A stretch of DNA of 64,000 nt from a virus. The stretch lies in IMG/VR virus record IMGVR_UViG_3300044691_000366, positions 1-64,000 of that record; one strand, written 5' to 3'. This document shows, piece after piece, positions 12,408 through 47,925 of the stretch. Made by a program: the position numbers and the translations under genes. The notes under the pieces are model-generated. The model saw only the letters and a program-made list of their open reading frames with translations, searched no databases and had not been told where the DNA came from. Positions within the stretch are counted from its first letter, which is position 1, and each line of letters begins with the position of its first letter.

Positions 12408-12632
12408 TCAGAATGCGCGCTCATACTTCGGATAGCGATCGGGGCCTCGCGGCTTCGCTCTGAAGGTGACGCTGCAATCAAATACCTCCAACACCTGGCG
12501 ATCCGACCATTCGCGGGGAATCGCAACACAGCCGGTTCGGATGTTCCGCCCGCGCCGGCTGTCCTGGGTGATCACGGCTCGGCGACCGCCTGGGTAAACC
12601 AACAGGAAGCGGAACGAGCATTTACGCTGCAT
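12408..12632 (-). CDS. Hypothetical basic protein, 74 aa
   Basis: Not recognised. Starts MQRKCSFRFLLVYPGG at ATG 12632, overlapping the rtcB 3' end by 11 bases. It is rich in Arg/Lys (SRRGRNIRTG, PRGPDRYPKYERAF) and could bind nucleic acid. Confidence 0.5.
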   Translation of the reverse strand: MQRKCSFRFLLVYPGGRRAVITQDSRRGRNIRTGCVAIPREWSDRQVLEVFDCSVTFRAKPRGPDRYPKYERAF

Positions 12633-14010
12633 CGCCCAGTTCCTTGCCTGCCCGGCGCCAGTCGATCTCGCCGGCCATGATGCAGCCGTAGGGCAGCACC
12701 TCGTCGACGATCTCGGCGAGACCGAAGCTCTTGATCTGTCGGCGAACGCTCTCGGCATTCTTGTAGGCGCCGGGCAGTTCGCTGAGGTCTTGCTTGCCAG
12801 AGAACCAGCGAGCATCGACCGTGGTTGTCGGAACTTCGTCGCCCAGGCTCTTGAGATAGCCGGTGCGGCTCAGGTTGCGGCCCGCGCCGTGCGGGGCAAA
12901 GCCCAGACCGTGATCGGCGTTGAGCCCGCGCGCGATCAGGATCGGCTCGGCCATATTCATCGGGATCAGCGTCAGACCGTTGGTGTCGACCGAGAAGCCC
13001 GGATAGGCTGGCGTCGCGCCCTTCGCGTGATAAAACAGTCCGTCCGGCTTCTGGAAGACGAAATTGTGCTCGTTCCAGAAGCGATCATCCATGAAGGAAT
13101 GCGTGTAGCCGGCGACGATTGTGTGGATCGAGAAGTGGTTCACCTTGGTCCAGGCGCGGCAGATTTGCAGAGCTTCCCAGTAGTCCTGACCTTCCTGCGA
13201 GTCGGCGACGATCCAGGCCTGGTGCTTGGGCACCGAGGGTGCGATCTTCTTGGTCATCGCCTCTGCGATCCGCATGCCAGCCTTGTAGACACGCGCGCCG
13301 AAGCCGCGAGATCCGTGGTGCGTCACGAGCGCGGTGCGACCTGAAGACTTCTGGGTGCCGGCGTAGTAAAAATGATTTCCATCACCCTGCGTGCCCATGT
13401 GGCGCTCGGCGTGTTCGATCAAAGGCGCCGTGATCGGGTTCGCCAGAATACGCGCACGCAATCCGTCGGGGAGGCGAAACAGGTCATCGTGTCGGCCGCC
13501 CGGCCCGAAATGCGTCAGCTTCATGCCGGCATCGAGGATGACTTTCGGCGTGGTGCTCGGACCAAAGACGGTGATTGCCATCGAGCAGCAGACGTCGGCC
13601 GAGTGAAAGCCCGGATGAATAGCGTTCTCGCAGGCGACCACGCCGCCGACCGGGATCGTGCCAGGCGCGGAGCCAGCGGGGCAGGCGTCGGGCATCACGG
13701 CGCCGGCCTTGATTGTCGGCACGCGCATCAGTTGGTGCATGTGAATATGAACGGCGTCCCAATTGGTCACTTCGTCGTCGGACATAACCTCGTCGCCGCC
13801 GGGGTTGTCCATGTTGCAGAAGTAGCCCAGCTCGCCGAAAGCGCGCCGCGGAATGTAGACCGGCGGCTCGGGAGCGTAGAGCGAGAGGGTGCTCTGAATC
13901 TGGTCAATCTCCATGCCCTCGTGAACCAGCTCGTTGGCACGCTCGATCGCCGGCTTGAACCACGGGCCGGGCGTGTAGCCCCATGCGATCAGGTCTTTTC
14001 CGGTGATCAT
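12622..14010 (-). CDS. rtcB: RNA-splicing ligase RtcB
   Basis: RtcB joins 2',3'-cyclic phosphate and 5'-OH RNA ends using GTP and Mn2+. Family landmarks are HPGFHSADVCCSM (metal-binding Asp-x-x-Cys region), GTQGDGNHFYY, THHGSRGFG and APHGAGRNLSR, which holds the guanylylated His. It is 462 residues long, close to the usual size. Coupled by ATGA to the upstream 105-aa gene and followed by the SbcC operon. In a phage it could repair tRNAs cut by host anticodon nucleases; that role is inferred. Confidence 0.92.
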   Translation of the reverse strand: MITGKDLIAWGYTPGPWFKPAIERANELVHEGMEIDQIQSTLSLYAPEPPVYIPRRAFGELGYFCNMDNPGGDEVMSDDEVTNWDAVHIHMHQLMRVPTIKAGAVMPDACPAGSAPGTIPVGGVVACENAIHPGFHSADVCCSMAITVFGPSTTPKVILDAGMKLTHFGPGGRHDDLFRLPDGLRARILANPITAPLIEHAERHMGTQGDGNHFYYAGTQKSSGRTALVTHHGSRGFGARVYKAGMRIAEAMTKKIAPSVPKHQAWIVADSQEGQDYWEALQICRAWTKVNHFSIHTIVAGYTHSFMDDRFWNEHNFVFQKPDGLFYHAKGATPAYPGFSVDTNGLTLIPMNMAEPILIARGLNADHGLGFAPHGAGRNLSRTGYLKSLGDEVPTTTVDARWFSGKQDLSELPGAYKNAESVRRQIKSFGLAEIVDEVLPYGCIMAGEIDWRRAGKELGDAA

Positions 14011-33730: not shown

Positions 33731-34153
33731 CTAGTGGACGAGCGCGGACAGCGCCTTGTGGGTGCCGACCGGCGGCGCCGGATCGCTATCTTTGGTGACC
33801 TTGCGCCAAATATCGATCAGGGCCGATTCGTTTTTGGTGATGATATTGCCGAAGATCTCCTGAACCGCCTGAAGTTCCTCGGGCCAATGCTGCACCATGA
33901 CCAGGCGCATCAGCAGCGCCGGATCAACGCCGAGCGATCGCGCCAGTTGCGGCACTTTCGGGATCGGCACTTTCACTTCTTCGCGGCGGAACATGGAAAC
34001 CATATTCGGCATCTTGTAACCCAGCTCTTCGGCAATGATCTTCTGGGTTCGCCCCATCGACGCCTGGATGTCGAGGTGCTTGGAAATAAATTCCGCAACG
34101 GTAATGCGGCTATGCGCGTCGGACCCTGCGGTCCTTGCGGTAGATTTTTTCAT
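33731..34153 (-). CDS. XRE/Cro-CI-type DNA-binding regulator
   Basis: 140 residues starting MKKSTARTAGSD at ATG 34153, with a GAGGACG ribosome-binding site; an ATG at 34180 is possible. A helix-turn-helix is visible in RTQKIIAEELGYKMPNMVSM, followed by the typical IPKVPQLARSLGVDPALLMR extension of XRE-type regulators. It stands at the divergence point between leftward and rightward transcription, has the operator palindrome in its own promoter and its own terminator. It is therefore the best candidate in the window for the protein that binds the 19 palindromes. Confidence 0.7.
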   Translation of the reverse strand: MKKSTARTAGSDAHSRITVAEFISKHLDIQASMGRTQKIIAEELGYKMPNMVSMFRREEVKVPIPKVPQLARSLGVDPALLMRLVMVQHWPEELQAVQEIFGNIITKNESALIDIWRKVTKDSDPAPPVGTHKALSALVH

Positions 34154-34240
34154 GTCTACGTCCTCGTGGTGGATACTCATCTAACTCAAAACCTTCTTCT
34201 GTTGTCCTTGTGTGTGCGTTGCTCAACTGAGCACGATAGA

Positions 34241-34282
34241 GATATAGCAGCGCATCAAAGGGACAGAAGTCAATTCTTACTT
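34241..34282 (-). promoter_or_regulatory. Promoter and operator of the XRE-type regulator
   Basis: -10 TATATC (34241-34246, after TGC), 16-bp spacer, -35 TTCTGT (34263-34268). Operator GAAGTCAATTCTTACTTT (about 34266-34282) overlaps the -35, so self-regulation is likely. Confidence 0.65.
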
Positions 34283-34319
34283 TGCTTATTTGGGAGTTTC
34301 GGGCTGGAGTCAAGCATCT

Positions 34320-34547
34320 TTTAACCAATTGTGTTTATTAGGTTCGAAATATCAAAGCCATATCAATGGCTTACAGGCAAAATATTCCATAATGAAGGTT
34401 ATGCGAATCGGCTTTGCCGTTCAACCTTGACTGTCTGAACCAGGCTGTGACCTGGTTTCGCGGTCAGAATACCAGGCTACAGCCTAACCCCTATGCGACT
34501 CAACTCGAATCGGTCATGACTCGTGGCGCAACGAGTCGGAGCCCTCA
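34320..34547 (+). promoter_or_regulatory. Control region with several inverted repeats
   Basis: An AT-richer stretch with no gene. Inverted repeats: AAGCCAT/ATGGCTT (34354-34371), AACCAGG/CCTGGTT (about 34438-34457), AGGCT/AGCCT (about 34473-34484) and GACTCGT/ACGAGTC (about 34518-34537). A plus-strand -10-like CATAAT (34388-34393) is followed by the operator half-site TTGACTGT (34427-34434). It may hold the rightward promoter and regulator sites. Confidence 0.5.
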
Positions 34548-34751
34548 ATGGATACCGGAAATCACGACCGCGTCCGCAAGATGCGGCAGAACCGCAAGAA
34601 GGCGGGCTTCACCGAGACGAACGTGTGGATCCCGAGTGAAGTGCGTCAGGCGATCGACCAAAAGATAGTCGAAGGTGAGTTCCCGACCCGTCGCATGGCT
34701 ATTATTCACGCTTTGGAAAAGGCTTACAAACCAACGAAAACAGAGGCTTAG
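34548..34751 (+). CDS. Small RHH-like regulator, 67 aa
   Basis: A basic N-terminus (HDRVRKMRQNRKKAG) leads into a strand FTETNVWIP and two helices (SEVRQAIDQKIVEGEF, RRMAIIHALEKAY). This order fits a ribbon-helix-helix DNA-binding fold. It lies directly upstream of repC with an intrinsic terminator between, so copy-number or rightward promoter control is likely. The family assignment is by pattern only. Confidence 0.55.
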   Translation: MDTGNHDRVRKMRQNRKKAGFTETNVWIPSEVRQAIDQKIVEGEFPTRRMAIIHALEKAYKPTKTEA

Positions 34752-34755
34752 ACAA

Positions 34756-34830
34756 GCAAAAGCCCCGCTGAGTTTGCCGCTCAGCAGGGCTTTCGGGTCT
34801 TGGAAGGCGTAAGAGGGGCCTTGAAACACC
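34756..34830 (-). ncRNA. Candidate antisense (counter-transcribed) RNA in the repC leader
   Basis: On the minus strand a promoter is visible with -35 TTGACA (34859-34864), a 17-bp spacer and -10 CATAAG (34836-34841). The transcript would run about 70 bases to the hairpin at 34761-34791 (11 of 12 pairs) followed by GGGGCTTTTGC, an intrinsic terminator. A small RNA of this size and position, opposite the repC leader, is the known copy-number control of repABC replicons. Confidence 0.55.
34758..34793. terminator. Terminator hairpin between the RHH-like gene and repC
   Basis: AGCCCCGCTGAG (34761-34772) pairs with CTCAGCAGGGCT (34780-34791) with one mismatch. It has TTT on the plus side and TTTT on the minus side, so it can end transcripts from both directions. 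Confidence 0.7.
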
Positions 34831-34914
34831 CCCTCCTTATGCCCTCCCAGAATCAAAGTGTCAATAACGCCGCTTTGGCGATCGCCCGCGCTTGTCCAAA
34901 TTTTGGGGAAGATC

Positions 34915-36075
34915 ATGCGAACGGCTCTTTCGGGAGGCCGGCCGACGTCGGCTGCTGCCTTGGAGGCACGACAACACCAGCTCGACGCCGAGCGCCAGGT
35001 CACGCGCAAGGAACTGTCGATGGCTGGGCGCGACGCCATGCGCGGGCTCAATCTTCGCGCCAACGACCGCCTCCTCCTGGGCGAGCTGATCGGCTGCTGG
35101 GGTGAGCGCATGGTCAATGACCGGATCATGGTCCACCCCTCGAACGAATACCTGGTGGCCCGCACTGGTCTGTCCGAGCGCCAGGTCCGCTATGGGATGC
35201 GGCGCCTGGTCGAGGAGAAGCTGGTGATCCCGAAGGACTCCGCCAACGGCAAGCGCTTCGTGGTCAAGAACCGGGCCGGCTCGATCGTCGACGTCTACGG
35301 CTTCGACCTGACCCCGGTGTTTGCGCGCCGCGGCGAGTGGTTCACGCTGGTCGCTGCCCAGGAAGCGCAGCGCGAGGCCAGGGCGCGTCTGTTCGACGAG
35401 GTGACAATCTGCCGGCGTGCGATCGAGGAGGTCGTCAGCGCCCTCGCCCGCCTGAGCAACGAGCGCTTTCAGGTCGATCTCGATCTCGAGGAACTGGCCG
35501 CGCGCACGCCGCGCCGGAATCTGACCGTTCATGAAGGCGTGCTGGCGCTGCTCGTCGACGCCTGGCGATCGCTGCGCGAGGTTGCCGAGGAAACCTACTA
35601 CCAGGCCGCCTCTGGCGGCAAACTGTGCCCTCACATTGAATCAAAGCCCCCTGGTCTATTAGATAAAACCTTGGAACAAGAAGCTTCCAACGAAGCTGGG
35701 GGCGTAGAAGAACCTTCTCCGATCGCGAGCAATGCGCCCGTCGAGCTGGTAGTCGAAGCATGTCCTTCTCTTTTGGAGTTTGTCGAGAGGCCGCGAACCG
35801 AGGTTGATCTGGTCGCCGCCGGGCGGTATTTGCGGTCATCGCTCGGGGCGTCGGGCGATGTCTGGGACGAAGCATGCAAGGCGCTGGGGCCGGTCAATGC
35901 CGCCGCGGCCGTCTGCCTGGTGTTCCAGCTCTACAACGACGACGTTTCCTCGGAGGAGCCCAAGATCCGTAATCCGGGCGGCTACCTTCGCGCCATGGTC
36001 CGGACGTTCAAGGACGGCCGGTCGAACGTGCGCCGCGAGTTGATGACGATGATCCGAAAACGGGAGCGACAATGA
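34915..36075 (+). CDS. repC: RepC-like replication initiator (repABC family)
   Basis: 386 residues. The N-terminal half matches plasmid RepC: VHPSNEYLVARTGLSERQVR, MRRLVEEKLVIPKDSANGKR, VKNRAGSIVDVYGFDLTPVF and then an ARLFDEVTICRRAIEE region. The C-terminal half (LGPVNAAAAVCLVFQLYN, NPGGYLRAMVRTF) also fits. RepC binds its origin, often inside repC itself, to start replication of alphaproteobacterial plasmids. No repA/repB partition genes are in the window. ATG 34915 follows TTGGGGAAGATC. The next gene overlaps by ATGA. Confidence 0.88.
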   Translation: MRTALSGGRPTSAAALEARQHQLDAERQVTRKELSMAGRDAMRGLNLRANDRLLLGELIGCWGERMVNDRIMVHPSNEYLVARTGLSERQVRYGMRRLVEEKLVIPKDSANGKRFVVKNRAGSIVDVYGFDLTPVFARRGEWFTLVAAQEAQREARARLFDEVTICRRAIEEVVSALARLSNERFQVDLDLEELAARTPRRNLTVHEGVLALLVDAWRSLREVAEETYYQAASGGKLCPHIESKPPGLLDKTLEQEASNEAGGVEEPSPIASNAPVELVVEACPSLLEFVERPRTEVDLVAAGRYLRSSLGASGDVWDEACKALGPVNAAAAVCLVFQLYNDDVSSEEPKIRNPGGYLRAMVRTFKDGRSNVRRELMTMIRKRERQ

Positions 36076-36833
36076 AGCCGTTAGGTTTTTACAACCCGCG
36101 AACGGCCGCGGTTGTTCGGAACACGGCAAAGCGAAACAAGATGCGCGACCGGCATTTCGACCGATTCGTCGGCCCACTGATCGAGCAGGCCTATGACGAA
36201 GGCGTGGTCTATTTTGGGCAACTGGCCGATTGGCTCAACAGTCGCCCTGTTCGCACCTGGAAAAACGAAGTCTGGACCAGGAGTCGGATCAAGGAAGCAT
36301 TCCGGCGCCAGCGTATTCGTCTCGCGCTGAAGTATCCGGTCGGTTTACCCACCTGCCCTGTCTGCGGCAGGATCGATCGCGTCGGCTGCGAAACCCAGGC
36401 GACCTGGTGCTATCCTGATTTTCGGATCAAGGGAACGACCAAGCCTCGCGTGTATAAGGCCCGCCCGATGCCACCGCCTCGGCAGATGCTGATCGCGCAA
36501 GAGGAGGAATGGCGCCGGGTCGACGCGCTTAAAATCGGGATTTCAAGCCGCGGCCGAGTTCGTAGGCGACGGCTTTTGGAACCGAAGGTTGGGCTGGATG
36601 GGCATTTATACGTCGAAGTCGATGGCTTTCGGTATTTCGTCGCCTATCTCGTGACGACAATCTTTCATGGACCGCGGGTCGGAGCCGAGACCATTCACTT
36701 CATCGACGGCGATTATGGCAATGCTTGTGCCGCAAATCTCGGCTGGGGCAAAGCTCGGCGGAAACGGTTGGCGCTGCCGGCGCCGCGGCCTGTGAGCGAT
36801 ATTGACCAGACGCTGAAATTGGGTTCAAGCTAG
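36072..36833 (+). CDS. HNH-like protein with additional N-terminal domain, 253 aa
   Basis: The C-terminal part resembles a NUMOD4/HNH core: a FVAYLVTTIFHGPRVG segment, then TIHFIDGDYGNACAANLGWG, where the usual HxD..N...NLxW pattern is kept but one His is not obvious. A pair of cysteines (CPVCG) lies mid-protein. The N-terminal 90 residues (HFDRFVGPLIEQAYDEGVVY) are helical and unassigned. It is co-translated with RepC (ATGA), so it may be a mobile nuclease or a RepC accessory. Confidence 0.55.
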   Translation: MKPLGFYNPRTAAVVRNTAKRNKMRDRHFDRFVGPLIEQAYDEGVVYFGQLADWLNSRPVRTWKNEVWTRSRIKEAFRRQRIRLALKYPVGLPTCPVCGRIDRVGCETQATWCYPDFRIKGTTKPRVYKARPMPPPRQMLIAQEEEWRRVDALKIGISSRGRVRRRRLLEPKVGLDGHLYVEVDGFRYFVAYLVTTIFHGPRVGAETIHFIDGDYGNACAANLGWGKARRKRLALPAPRPVSDIDQTLKLGSS

Positions 36834-37241: not shown

Positions 37242-37317
37242 TGGTTGCAGGGGCGGGATTTGAACCCGCGGTGGTCGGTTATGAGCCGAGTGCCTTACCG
37301 GACTTGGCGACCCTGCT
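37242..37317 (-). tRNA. tRNA-Met (anticodon CAU) with encoded CCA
   Basis: 76 bases read on the minus strand. D-arm GCC/GGC, anticodon arm CTCGG-CTCATAA-CCGAC, T-arm GCGGG-TTCAAAT-CCCGC, then CCCTGCA, discriminator A and CCA. Acceptor pairs 2-71 to 7-66 are intact, but 1-72 is A-A and 27-43 is C-C. A CAU anticodon could also decode AUA as isoleucine if modified to lysidine. Confidence 0.88.
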
Positions 37318-46853: not shown

Positions 46854-46887
46854 TTAACAAATCCATTTTGTGGTCGAGTTTTTTCCA

Positions 46888-47925
46888 ATGAAACGGTTTT
46901 ATTTGATAGACGCCTTGCGGGCATCCATGATTTTTATTGTCCTGGCCCACGCCAAAGATGGTCATCACATCGACGACCTGATCGCGGTGTCGCCATCGTT
47001 CGTTGTTTTTATCTTCAATCACGGCGTTTGGGCTGTTGGCTTGTTCTTCGTCATTAGCGGGTTCGTTGTCACTCACAATCTGACTGGCTTACCTATCACC
47101 GGCTCGTTGAGCTTGCGGTTCCTGGCAAGACGGTCACTGCGCCTCGATCCCACATATTGGTTCGCGATTGCGCTTTCTATTTCCGTCGCGTTCCTGTCCA
47201 CTAAATTCGTTGTCGGCAAAGAGCTTCCGCACTATCTGATCCCGCAGCTCGTCTCGCATGTGTTCTATCTGCAGGGCATCCTTGGCTACGATCACATCGA
47301 TCCCGCCTACTGGACTCTTTGTTTCGAGTTCCAGTTCTATATTTCCTTCGTCCTCATACTCTGGCTCGGCGGCGGCGATCCGCTGGCAAAGGATGCGCGC
47401 GGCACCCGTTGGGCGCTCGTCTCGATCGCCCTCGGAAGCGTGATCTGGCCTCTCTTTGGGGCGCCATGCCCGCAGGGCGTTTTTCTTGAAGTCGCTTATA
47501 TGTTTTTCTTTGGCGTATTCGCCTATTGGGCTTTCCGCTCCAGTGCATTGCGGCCGTGGTTTTTGGGCTACAGCGTGCTGCTCGCCGTCGCATTCGCTTT
47601 CGTGGGCAATGATCTTGCCTGCTTTTGCGCGCTGGCCGCTCTGGCTCTCTCGATGGTCGCGTGGGCAGATCGACTCAATCTGGGCAACTGGAAGTTCCTG
47701 CAATTTCTCGGCCTGATTTCCTATTCCGTCTATTTGGTACACAACCCGATCAGCGCCGTCGTCTTTCGAATCGGCACCAAGCTGATGCCAAATCAAACTC
47801 CCGCCGTGCAAGCCCTTTGGCTGGCAATCGACGTGACGGCATGCGTCGGTTTTGCCTACCTCGTGTGGCGTTTTGTGGAGGGACCAAGCACCGATCTGGC
47901 ACGCCGGGTTAAATTAACGCCATGA
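46888..47925 (+). CDS. Membrane acyltransferase (OafA/acyltransferase 3 family)
   Basis: 345 residues with about ten hydrophobic helices. It starts MKRFYLIDALRASMIFIVLA, where the family has R-x-D-x-x-R-A-xx (here IDALRAS) and a His following (AHAKDGHH). Further family traits are the GLFFVISGFVV segment and an RFLARRSLRLDPTYW motif. These enzymes acetylate or succinylate surface sugars. In phages they change the host O-antigen or other glycan and block superinfection by relatives. It is one of few plus-strand genes and looks like an acquired cargo gene. Confidence 0.85.
   Translation: MKRFYLIDALRASMIFIVLAHAKDGHHIDDLIAVSPSFVVFIFNHGVWAVGLFFVISGFVVTHNLTGLPITGSLSLRFLARRSLRLDPTYWFAIALSISVAFLSTKFVVGKELPHYLIPQLVSHVFYLQGILGYDHIDPAYWTLCFEFQFYISFVLILWLGGGDPLAKDARGTRWALVSIALGSVIWPLFGAPCPQGVFLEVAYMFFFGVFAYWAFRSSALRPWFLGYSVLLAVAFAFVGNDLACFCALAALALSMVAWADRLNLGNWKFLQFLGLISYSVYLVHNPISAVVFRIGTKLMPNQTPAVQALWLAIDVTACVGFAYLVWRFVEGPSTDLARRVKLTP

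What the first reader, a model, noticed from the sequence alone, without database searches (positions are those of the whole stretch)
34756..36075. RepC initiator with a candidate antisense RNA: possible phage-plasmid
The repABC-type RepC gene is preceded by an antisense promoter (TTGACA, 17 bp, CATAAG), a roughly 70-base transcript region and a terminator hairpin, the arrangement of the counter-transcribed RNA that sets copy number in repABC plasmids. RepA/RepB are absent here. A tailed phage with this replicon may persist as a plasmid, and the regulon of palindromes could maintain that state.
Basis: partly seen in the sequence, partly recalled or inferred. Interest (0 to 1): 0.8.

Follow-up and report, generated by a model that had tools for sequence, protein, structure and literature searches.

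The report
Phage-plasmid replicon with antisense copy control
This is part of a roughly 117-kb tailed phage that very probably lives in its alphaproteobacterial host as a plasmid, using a RepC initiator whose level is set by a small antisense RNA; such RepC phage-plasmids are already known, but their antisense RNA does not seem to have been described.

Summary
RepC is genuine (Pfam, NCBIfam equivalog). The antisense promoter TTGACA-17-CATAAG and the terminator hairpin are exact, and recur at the same distance from repC in all 35 readable loci with this phage backbone and in RepC plasmids. A covariance model trained only on plasmid leaders finds the window's antisense RNA (E 3e-6). Two leader hairpins and a long-range helix covary.

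The record is a 67-kb fragment ending in tail genes, collinear with RHEph10, B1VFA and pLM21S1 (115-122 kb). All 14 near-complete relatives carry a ParA-like gene and two ParB_N genes beside the terminase, and no tyrosine integrase. Three are complete circular plasmids in sequenced bacteria. RepA/RepB are 'absent' because that part is missing and par is unlinked in this family. The closest relative is a Methylocystis MAG (RepC 72%).

The phage-plasmid reading is supported. The kind is known since 2015 (pLM21S1/RHEph10), and so is ctRNA control in repC/repABC plasmids. New here: the phage ctRNA and leader, outside Rfam's p42d models; at least six phage/plasmid switches in the RepC tree; a dispersed operator regulon. 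Transcription, autonomous replication and lysogeny are inferred, not shown.

The parts
33731..34180 (-). XRE/Cro-type HTH protein, candidate immunity repressor
   Evidence: syntenic with annotated XRE HTH in phages X66 and pLM21S1; PHROG transcriptional regulator, weak E 0.007; candidate operator in its own upstream region
34267..34282 (.). palindromic operator AAGTCAATTCTTACTT upstream of the XRE gene
   Evidence: one of 18 sites with at most 3 mismatches to AAGTCAANNTTGACTT in the record, null mean 0.75
34384..34408 (.). conserved 25-bp dyad ATTCCATAATGAAGGTTATGCGAAT between XRE and RHH genes, role unknown
   Evidence: single copy in window; same position and symmetry in L002, L003, L005, L013, L015, L027, L032, L062
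34518..34537 (.). palindrome GACTCGTGGCGCAACGAGTC just before the RHH gene, candidate RHH autoregulatory site
   Evidence: dyad; conserved ACTCGnnnCGnnACGAGT form in L002, L027, L031, L062
34548..34751 (+). 67-aa ribbon-helix-helix protein, first gene of the rhh-repC unit
   Evidence: orthologues annotated CopG/RHH in L004, L005, L016, L022; B1VFA orthologue matches NikR/CdrS/ParD RHH models weakly; window copy itself only MazE-like 0.01
34751..34757 (+). 5' arm GACAAGC of the long-range leader helix (pairs with 34890-34896)
   Evidence: covarying versions GGCAAGC/GCTTGCC, GGCAAAGC/GCTTTGCC, GGCAAAAC/GTTTTGCC, AACGCT/AGCGTT in relatives
34759..34793 (-). terminator hairpin of the antisense RNA (also in the repC leader)
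   Evidence: 14-pair stem; -28 kcal/mol; hairpin at equivalent place in nearly all relatives
34750..34829 (-). predicted antisense RNA (ctRNA), about 75-80 nt; ends inferred
   Evidence: promoter and terminator conservation; plasmid-trained covariance model hit 34741-34864 minus, E 2.8e-6
34836..34864 (-). ctRNA promoter TTGACA-17-CATAAG; spacer holds a GANTC site
34868..34880 (+). leader hairpin H1 CGCCG(ctt)TGGCG
   Evidence: 26 different stem sequences in 49 loci, all able to pair; compensatory changes
34890..34896 (+). 3' arm GCTTGTC of the long-range helix, overlapping the 5' arm of S (mutually exclusive)
34895..34907 (+). S hairpin TCCAA(att)TTGGG covering the Shine-Dalgarno GGGGAAG
   Evidence: 31 different stems in 49 loci
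34915..36075 (+). RepC replication initiator, 386 aa
35590..35740 (.). A+T-rich stretch inside repC, candidate oriV
   Evidence: about 45-50% A+T against about 33% in the rest of repC; same place in L002, L003, L018, L062; p42d precedent PMC3155836

Best explanation
The segment is the plasmid-maintenance cassette of a RHEph10/pLM21S1-type phage-plasmid, of which the record holds about 57%. Order: repressor-like XRE gene (minus), then on the plus strand a ribbon-helix-helix gene, a leader crossed by an antisense RNA, and repC with its origin probably inside the gene. Most likely mechanism: repC is transcribed with rhh, which probably autorepresses. In the free leader the GACAAGC:GCTTGTC helix forms and keeps the Shine-Dalgarno open. 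The constitutive antisense RNA binds the leader, sequesters GACAAGC, and frees GCTTGTCC so that the S hairpin forms over the Shine-Dalgarno; RepC falls and copy number stays low. Partition is supplied by the ParA-like/ParB_N genes in the missing part, and lytic replication by the phage's own polymerase, helicase and primase. Shown by sequence: genes, promoter, terminator, conservation, covariation, synteny. Inferred: transcription, RNA ends, switch mechanism, autonomous replication, rhh autorepression and the lysogenic state.
For: RepC domains and equivalog match. ctRNA promoter and terminator in 35 of 35 readable phage loci and in RepC plasmids; independent covariance-model hit at 2.8e-6. Covarying H1, S and long-range helix. 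Collinearity with B1VFA and RHEph10 from nuclease/polymerase genes to tail genes. ParA-like plus two ParB_N in 14 of 14 near-complete relatives, integrase in 0 of 15 records. Terminase and capsid on complete circular plasmids pLM21S1, pRlX6, pAMS5a. A+T-rich origin-like stretch and GANTC clustering (7 against 1.4) as in repABC loci (PMC3155836, PMC11514494). Dispersed operators.
Against: No RNA data and no replication test. The -10 box matches only 4 of 6. The record is incomplete, so its own par genes are not seen. The ParA match is weak (Walker region only) and the ParB_N proteins could be something other than partition proteins. pLM21S1 was not induced by mitomycin C (PMC4447125), so the full cycle has not been shown for the plasmid members. 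The long-range helix is unclear in some relatives, among them the closest (L062).
Confidence: 0.85

Rival explanations
1. RepC is used only to start lytic replication; the phage is virulent and the antisense RNA merely tunes early replication. No plasmid state exists.
For: Full replication module in the same genome (polymerase III alpha-like, primase, DnaB, ligase); RHEph10 and B1VFA are phage isolates; pLM21S1 was not inducible (PMC4447125).
Against: Three complete circular plasmids in bacterial assemblies carry the phage capsid and terminase genes with RepC; ParA-like/ParB_N genes in every near-complete relative; a repressor-like gene with dispersed operators; negative copy control has little use in a purely lytic genome.
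Confidence: 0.08
2. The hairpin is only the terminator of the 67-aa gene and the antisense promoter is a chance match; no regulatory RNA.
For: The hairpin begins right after the rhh stop codon and is nearly symmetrical; the -10 is imperfect; Rfam has no hit above threshold.
Against: repC lies downstream on the same strand, yet hairpin, promoter, spacing and leader structures are kept over wide divergence and found by a model trained on other replicons; classical repABC loci in the same scan show the analogous promoter where Rfam places ctRNA_p42d.
Confidence: 0.04
3. The cassette is a decayed or hitchhiking plasmid fragment without function in the phage.
For: RepC and its cassette move between plasmids and phages; one plasmid member, pRlX6, has RepC split into two ORFs.
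Against: Intact ORF, same site between cobT and ligase/primase genes in all phage lineages, conserved control RNA with compensatory changes.
Confidence: 0.03

Closest known systems
pLM21S1 / Rhizobium phage RHEph10 group of plasmid-like prophages (also B1VFA, V1VFA-S, RHph_X66, pRlX6)
   Same: Collinear backbone (cobS, cobT, sigma factor, polymerase, ligase, primase, DnaB, tail genes) and the XRE / RHH / ctRNA / repC locus at the same site; named as a group of plasmid-like prophages in PMC4447125 and as phage-plasmid-like in PMC12509600.
   Different: RepC only about 36-38% identical; the window belongs to a separate lineage with L002, L027, L032 and the Methylocystis MAG; operator sequence differs (AAGTCAA..TTGACTT against AAGTAA....TTACTT in B1VFA).
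RepC-only 'repC family' plasmids of rhizobia (pRmeGR4a, pSmeLPU88b second replicon)
   Same: repC not in an operon with repA/repB, antisense RNA upstream acting as negative regulator and incompatibility determinant (PMC10194956).
   Different: Those plasmid sequences were not compared directly here; the window's cassette sits in a phage genome and has an RHH gene upstream.
repABC replicons with ctRNA/RepE and S-element (p42d, Ti plasmid)
   Same: RepC, antisense RNA upstream of repC, SD-proximal stem-loop, A+T-rich origin-like region inside repC, GANTC clustering.
   Different: No repA/repB next to repC; RepC about 27-29% identical to the classical rhizobial proteins; longer RNA; Rfam RF00489 and RF00490 match classical loci but not this one.
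pMV158 CopG / RNAII / RepB control region
   Same: Order small RHH-type protein, antisense RNA, initiator gene: an analogy of design (PMC4485353 abstract for pMV158).
   Different: Unrelated initiator and rolling-circle replication; analogy only, RHH autorepression not tested.

Membership tests
RepC initiator family (Pfam RP-C, NCBIfam RepABC_RepC) | N- and C-terminal RP-C domains above curated cut-offs | tested here: met
   127.9 and 69.1 bits against 24.4 and 32.6; equivalog 194 against 150
repABC operon | repA and repB directly upstream of repC in one transcription unit | tested here: not met
   RHH gene in that place; no ParA/ParB match in the record
RepC-only ('repC family') replicon | repC without linked repA/repB, antisense RNA upstream | tested here: met
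RepC-only ('repC family') replicon | cloned repC region replicates autonomously | not testable with these tools
   needs suicide-vector assay
ctRNA_p42d (Rfam RF00489) and S-element (RF00490) | covariance-model match above gathering score | tested here: not met
   no hit in window at gathering or at E up to 10 near repC; control repABC loci do match. It works like a ctRNA but is outside these two models
RHEph10/pLM21S1 phage-plasmid group | collinear phage backbone with RepC locus between cobT and ligase/primase genes | tested here: met
RHEph10/pLM21S1 phage-plasmid group | ParA/ParB genes near the terminase | tested here: inconclusive
   region missing from this 67-kb record; present in 14 of 14 near-complete relatives
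Phage-plasmid (temperate phage replicating as plasmid) | extrachromosomal circular form in a host | tested here: inconclusive
   not seen for this record; seen for pLM21S1, pRlX6, pAMS5a
Phage-plasmid (temperate phage replicating as plasmid) | no chromosomal integration module | tested here: inconclusive
   no PF00589 in this partial record or in 14 near-complete relatives; serine recombinases not searched

The most novel reading that the evidence does not exclude
RepC phage-plasmids carry a distinct class of antisense RNA with a three-helix leader switch (the ctRNA tail repeats the leader segment it displaces), and are a reservoir from which plasmids repeatedly take complete RHH-ctRNA-repC replicons and give them back. 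The ctRNA would then act as an incompatibility and superinfection-immunity factor between phages and resident plasmids.
Probability: 0.3. Interest if true: 0.6.

Novelty: new member of a known kind. Interest (0 to 1): 0.45.

Why it matters
It extends a known group of RepC phage-plasmids from Rhizobium and Sinorhizobium to a deep lineage whose nearest relative is in a methanotroph (Methylocystis) bin. It also shows that the signature of copy control by a counter-transcribed RNA goes with the phage RepC across all its lineages. If the RNA also decides plasmid incompatibility, it would link plasmid compatibility with phage immunity, and the cassette's movement between phages and conjugative or megaplasmids gives a concrete case of replicon exchange. 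The control locus is compact (under 2 kb) and easy to test.

Tried and rejected
Rfam scan for known ctRNA/S-element: no hit in the window, though control repABC loci hit, so the name RF00489 is not used. The simple promoter scan did not list the antisense promoter because it demands T at -10 position 6; tested by conservation instead. My first palindrome pattern ATTCSCATAA..TTATGSGAAT gave nothing. The idea that the AGTCAA..TTGACT palindromes are plain -35 boxes was dropped: no -10 follows at 16-18 bp, while many sites are preceded by a GCTATA-type box. The 2010 p42d ctRNA mechanism paper is not held, so how far the long-range helix matches its model is not checked. PMC8631192 (temperate R. 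leguminosarum phages) does not mention RHEph10 or RepC and was set aside.

Full report
WHAT IS THERE. The gene at 34915-36075 + encodes a 386-aa RepC with both RP-C domains and scores above the cut-off of NCBI's RepABC_RepC equivalog. On the minus strand upstream stands TTGACA (34864-34859), 17 bp, CATAAG (34841-34836), then a hairpin of 14 pairs at 34759-34793 followed by TTTTGCTT.

IS IT MORE THAN CHANCE. I collected RepC loci from phages, plasmids, IMG/VR and bacterial genomes, and classified them by neighbouring genes. In all 35 readable loci with this phage backbone a TTGAC[AGT] box stands 16-18 bp from a -10-like hexamer at -73 to -98 from repC, with a strong hairpin downstream in all but one. 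The same holds for RepC-only and Microvirga repABC plasmids. The classical rhizobial repABC loci in the same scan show the analogous promoter where Rfam places ctRNA_p42d. As an independent test I built a covariance model from 14 plasmid leaders only: it finds the window's RNA (34741-34864 minus, E 2.8e-6 in 865 kb), nearly every other phage locus at the repC leader (some weakly), and nothing in the four classical repABC loci.

LEADER STRUCTURE. Between the antisense promoter and repC lie a hairpin H1 and a hairpin S over the Shine-Dalgarno. H1 shows 26 different stem sequences and S 31 among 49 loci, with compensatory changes (the sequences are related, so the p-values are only indicative, and the window's own hairpins taken alone are not better than shuffles). 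A long-range helix joins the segment just before the terminator (GACAAGC, 34751-34757) with GCTTGTC (34890-34896). Relatives carry GGCAAGC/GCTTGCC, GGCAAAGC/GCTTTGCC, GGCAAAAC/GTTTTGCC or AACGCT/AGCGTT at the same places; in a few lineages (L062, L035, L003, L005) the helix is not clear. GCTTGTC overlaps the 5' arm of S, so the two helices exclude each other. Because the antisense RNA is complementary to GACAAGC, its 3' tail, if transcription runs that far, repeats the leader's GCTTGTC. This gives a simple switch (inference): without ctRNA the long helix holds the S arm and RepC is made; with ctRNA S forms and RepC falls. It agrees in outline with the p42d model summarised in PMC3155836.

THE GENOME. 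The record is 67,173 bp, a linear virus record. It is collinear with B1VFA and RHEph10 from nuclease/polymerase genes through cobS, cobT, XRE, RHH, repC, primase, DnaB and PhoH to tail genes, and ends in the minor tail region. In B1VFA the capsid, terminase, ParB-like genes (49.8-51.2 kb) and ParA-like gene (46.1 kb) come next. None of these is in the record. All 14 near-complete relatives (109-122 kb) have one ParA-like match and two ParB_N matches; no record has a tyrosine integrase. B1VFA terminase and capsid homologues lie on pLM21S1, pRlX6 and pAMS5a, which are complete circular plasmids of Sinorhizobium, Rhizobium and Methylobacterium. The ParA match covers mainly the Walker region, so partition is probable rather than proven.

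HOST. The nearest RepC (72%) is in a MAG labelled Methylocystis, with the same backbone. The same MAG holds matching terminase, capsid and ParB_N genes on another contig. Methylocystis or a near relative is the best guess; binning errors are possible.

REPC TREE. The window groups with the Methylocystis MAG, L002, L027 and L032. Phage RepCs do not form one clade; holding them together is strongly rejected, with or without the recent case pRlX2. At least six label changes are forced by starred branches. pRlX2, a conjugative R. leguminosarum plasmid without phage terminase or capsid, carries 1.5 kb of rhh-ctRNA-repC at 85% nucleotide identity to a phage contig plus a 102-bp cobS fragment: a clear transfer, phage to plasmid by the cobS remnant. 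The deeper direction of transfer is open, since roots and long branches are weak and the sample was drawn by similarity to this RepC.

ORIGIN AND CELL-CYCLE SIGNS. An A+T-rich stretch lies in repC at about 35590-35740, at the same place as in relatives and comparable to the p42d origin region (PMC3155836). GANTC sites number 7 against 1.4 expected in 34181-34914, and 29 of 33 leaders have at least one, as reported for repABC loci (PMC11514494).

PALINDROME REGULON. AAGTCAANNTTGACTT has 18 sites with at most 3 mismatches against a mean of 0.75 in resampled sequence; 16 are between genes, mostly within 100 bp of a gene start, one before the XRE gene. Many follow a GCTATA-type -10 box. In B1VFA the motif is AAGTAANNNNTTACTT, with 34 matches in its first 75 kb against none expected. 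Operator and XRE protein diverge together, which suggests they belong together. This fits a lysogeny repressor with dispersed operators, as in P1 (P1 from my own knowledge), but is not proven.

KNOWN OR NEW. The group was named in 2015 (PMC4447125: pLM21S1 and RHEph10, no integrase, RepC and partition genes) and extended in 2025 (PMC12509600). Antisense control of RepC-only plasmids is also known (PMC10194956). I found no text in the held library on an antisense RNA in these phages: the word antisense does not occur in PMC5537653 or PMC4447125 and I saw none in PMC12509600; most subscription papers are not held. Verdict: a new, divergent member of a known kind, with a control RNA that Rfam does not cover.

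Noticed in passing
window 4166, 8539, 9755, 16103, 30408, 33380, 33662, 34267, 38151, 38253, 40712, 43912, 46625, 52620, 54543, 56185, 59693: Dispersed palindrome AAGTCAANNTTGACTT, 18 sites against 0.75 expected, mostly at gene starts and often just after a GCTATA box; B1VFA has a sister motif AAGTAANNNNTTACTT with 34 matches in 75 kb. Looks like a genome-wide lysogeny regulon.
   Followed up: partly
L142 4983-7087 (NZ_CP140864.1, pRlX2): Conjugative Rhizobium plasmid carries the phage rhh-ctRNA-repC cassette at 85% nucleotide identity plus a 102-bp cobS remnant, without terminase or capsid: replicon captured from a phage-plasmid.
   Followed up: partly
L062 (JALHNR010000003.1) and contig C4 of the same MAG: Methylocystis MAG holds the closest relative of the window in at least two contigs, with terminase, capsid and ParB_N genes.
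   Followed up: partly
NZ_CP006993.1 (pAMS5a), same as L030: A 117,697-bp Methylobacterium plasmid listed as an ordinary plasmid carries the backbone, terminase, capsid and RepC of this phage-plasmid family.
   Followed up: partly
window 34384-34408: 25-bp dyad ATTCCATAATGAAGGTTATGCGAAT, conserved in position and symmetry in most lineages checked; could be a centromere or regulator site.
   Followed up: no
window 36072-36833: HNH endonuclease gene overlapping the repC stop codon; no equivalent between repC and the tRNA in L002.
   Followed up: no
window 37242-37317: tRNA-Met (CAT) on the minus strand downstream of repC; a tRNA also lies right after repC in L002 and L062.
   Followed up: no
window 46870-47925: O-acetyltransferase, distantly like O-antigen acetylases, on the opposite strand to its neighbours: possible lysogenic conversion gene.
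   Followed up: no
window 12622-14010: RtcB-like RNA ligase, kept in B1VFA at 53% identity but at a different place in the genome.
   Followed up: no
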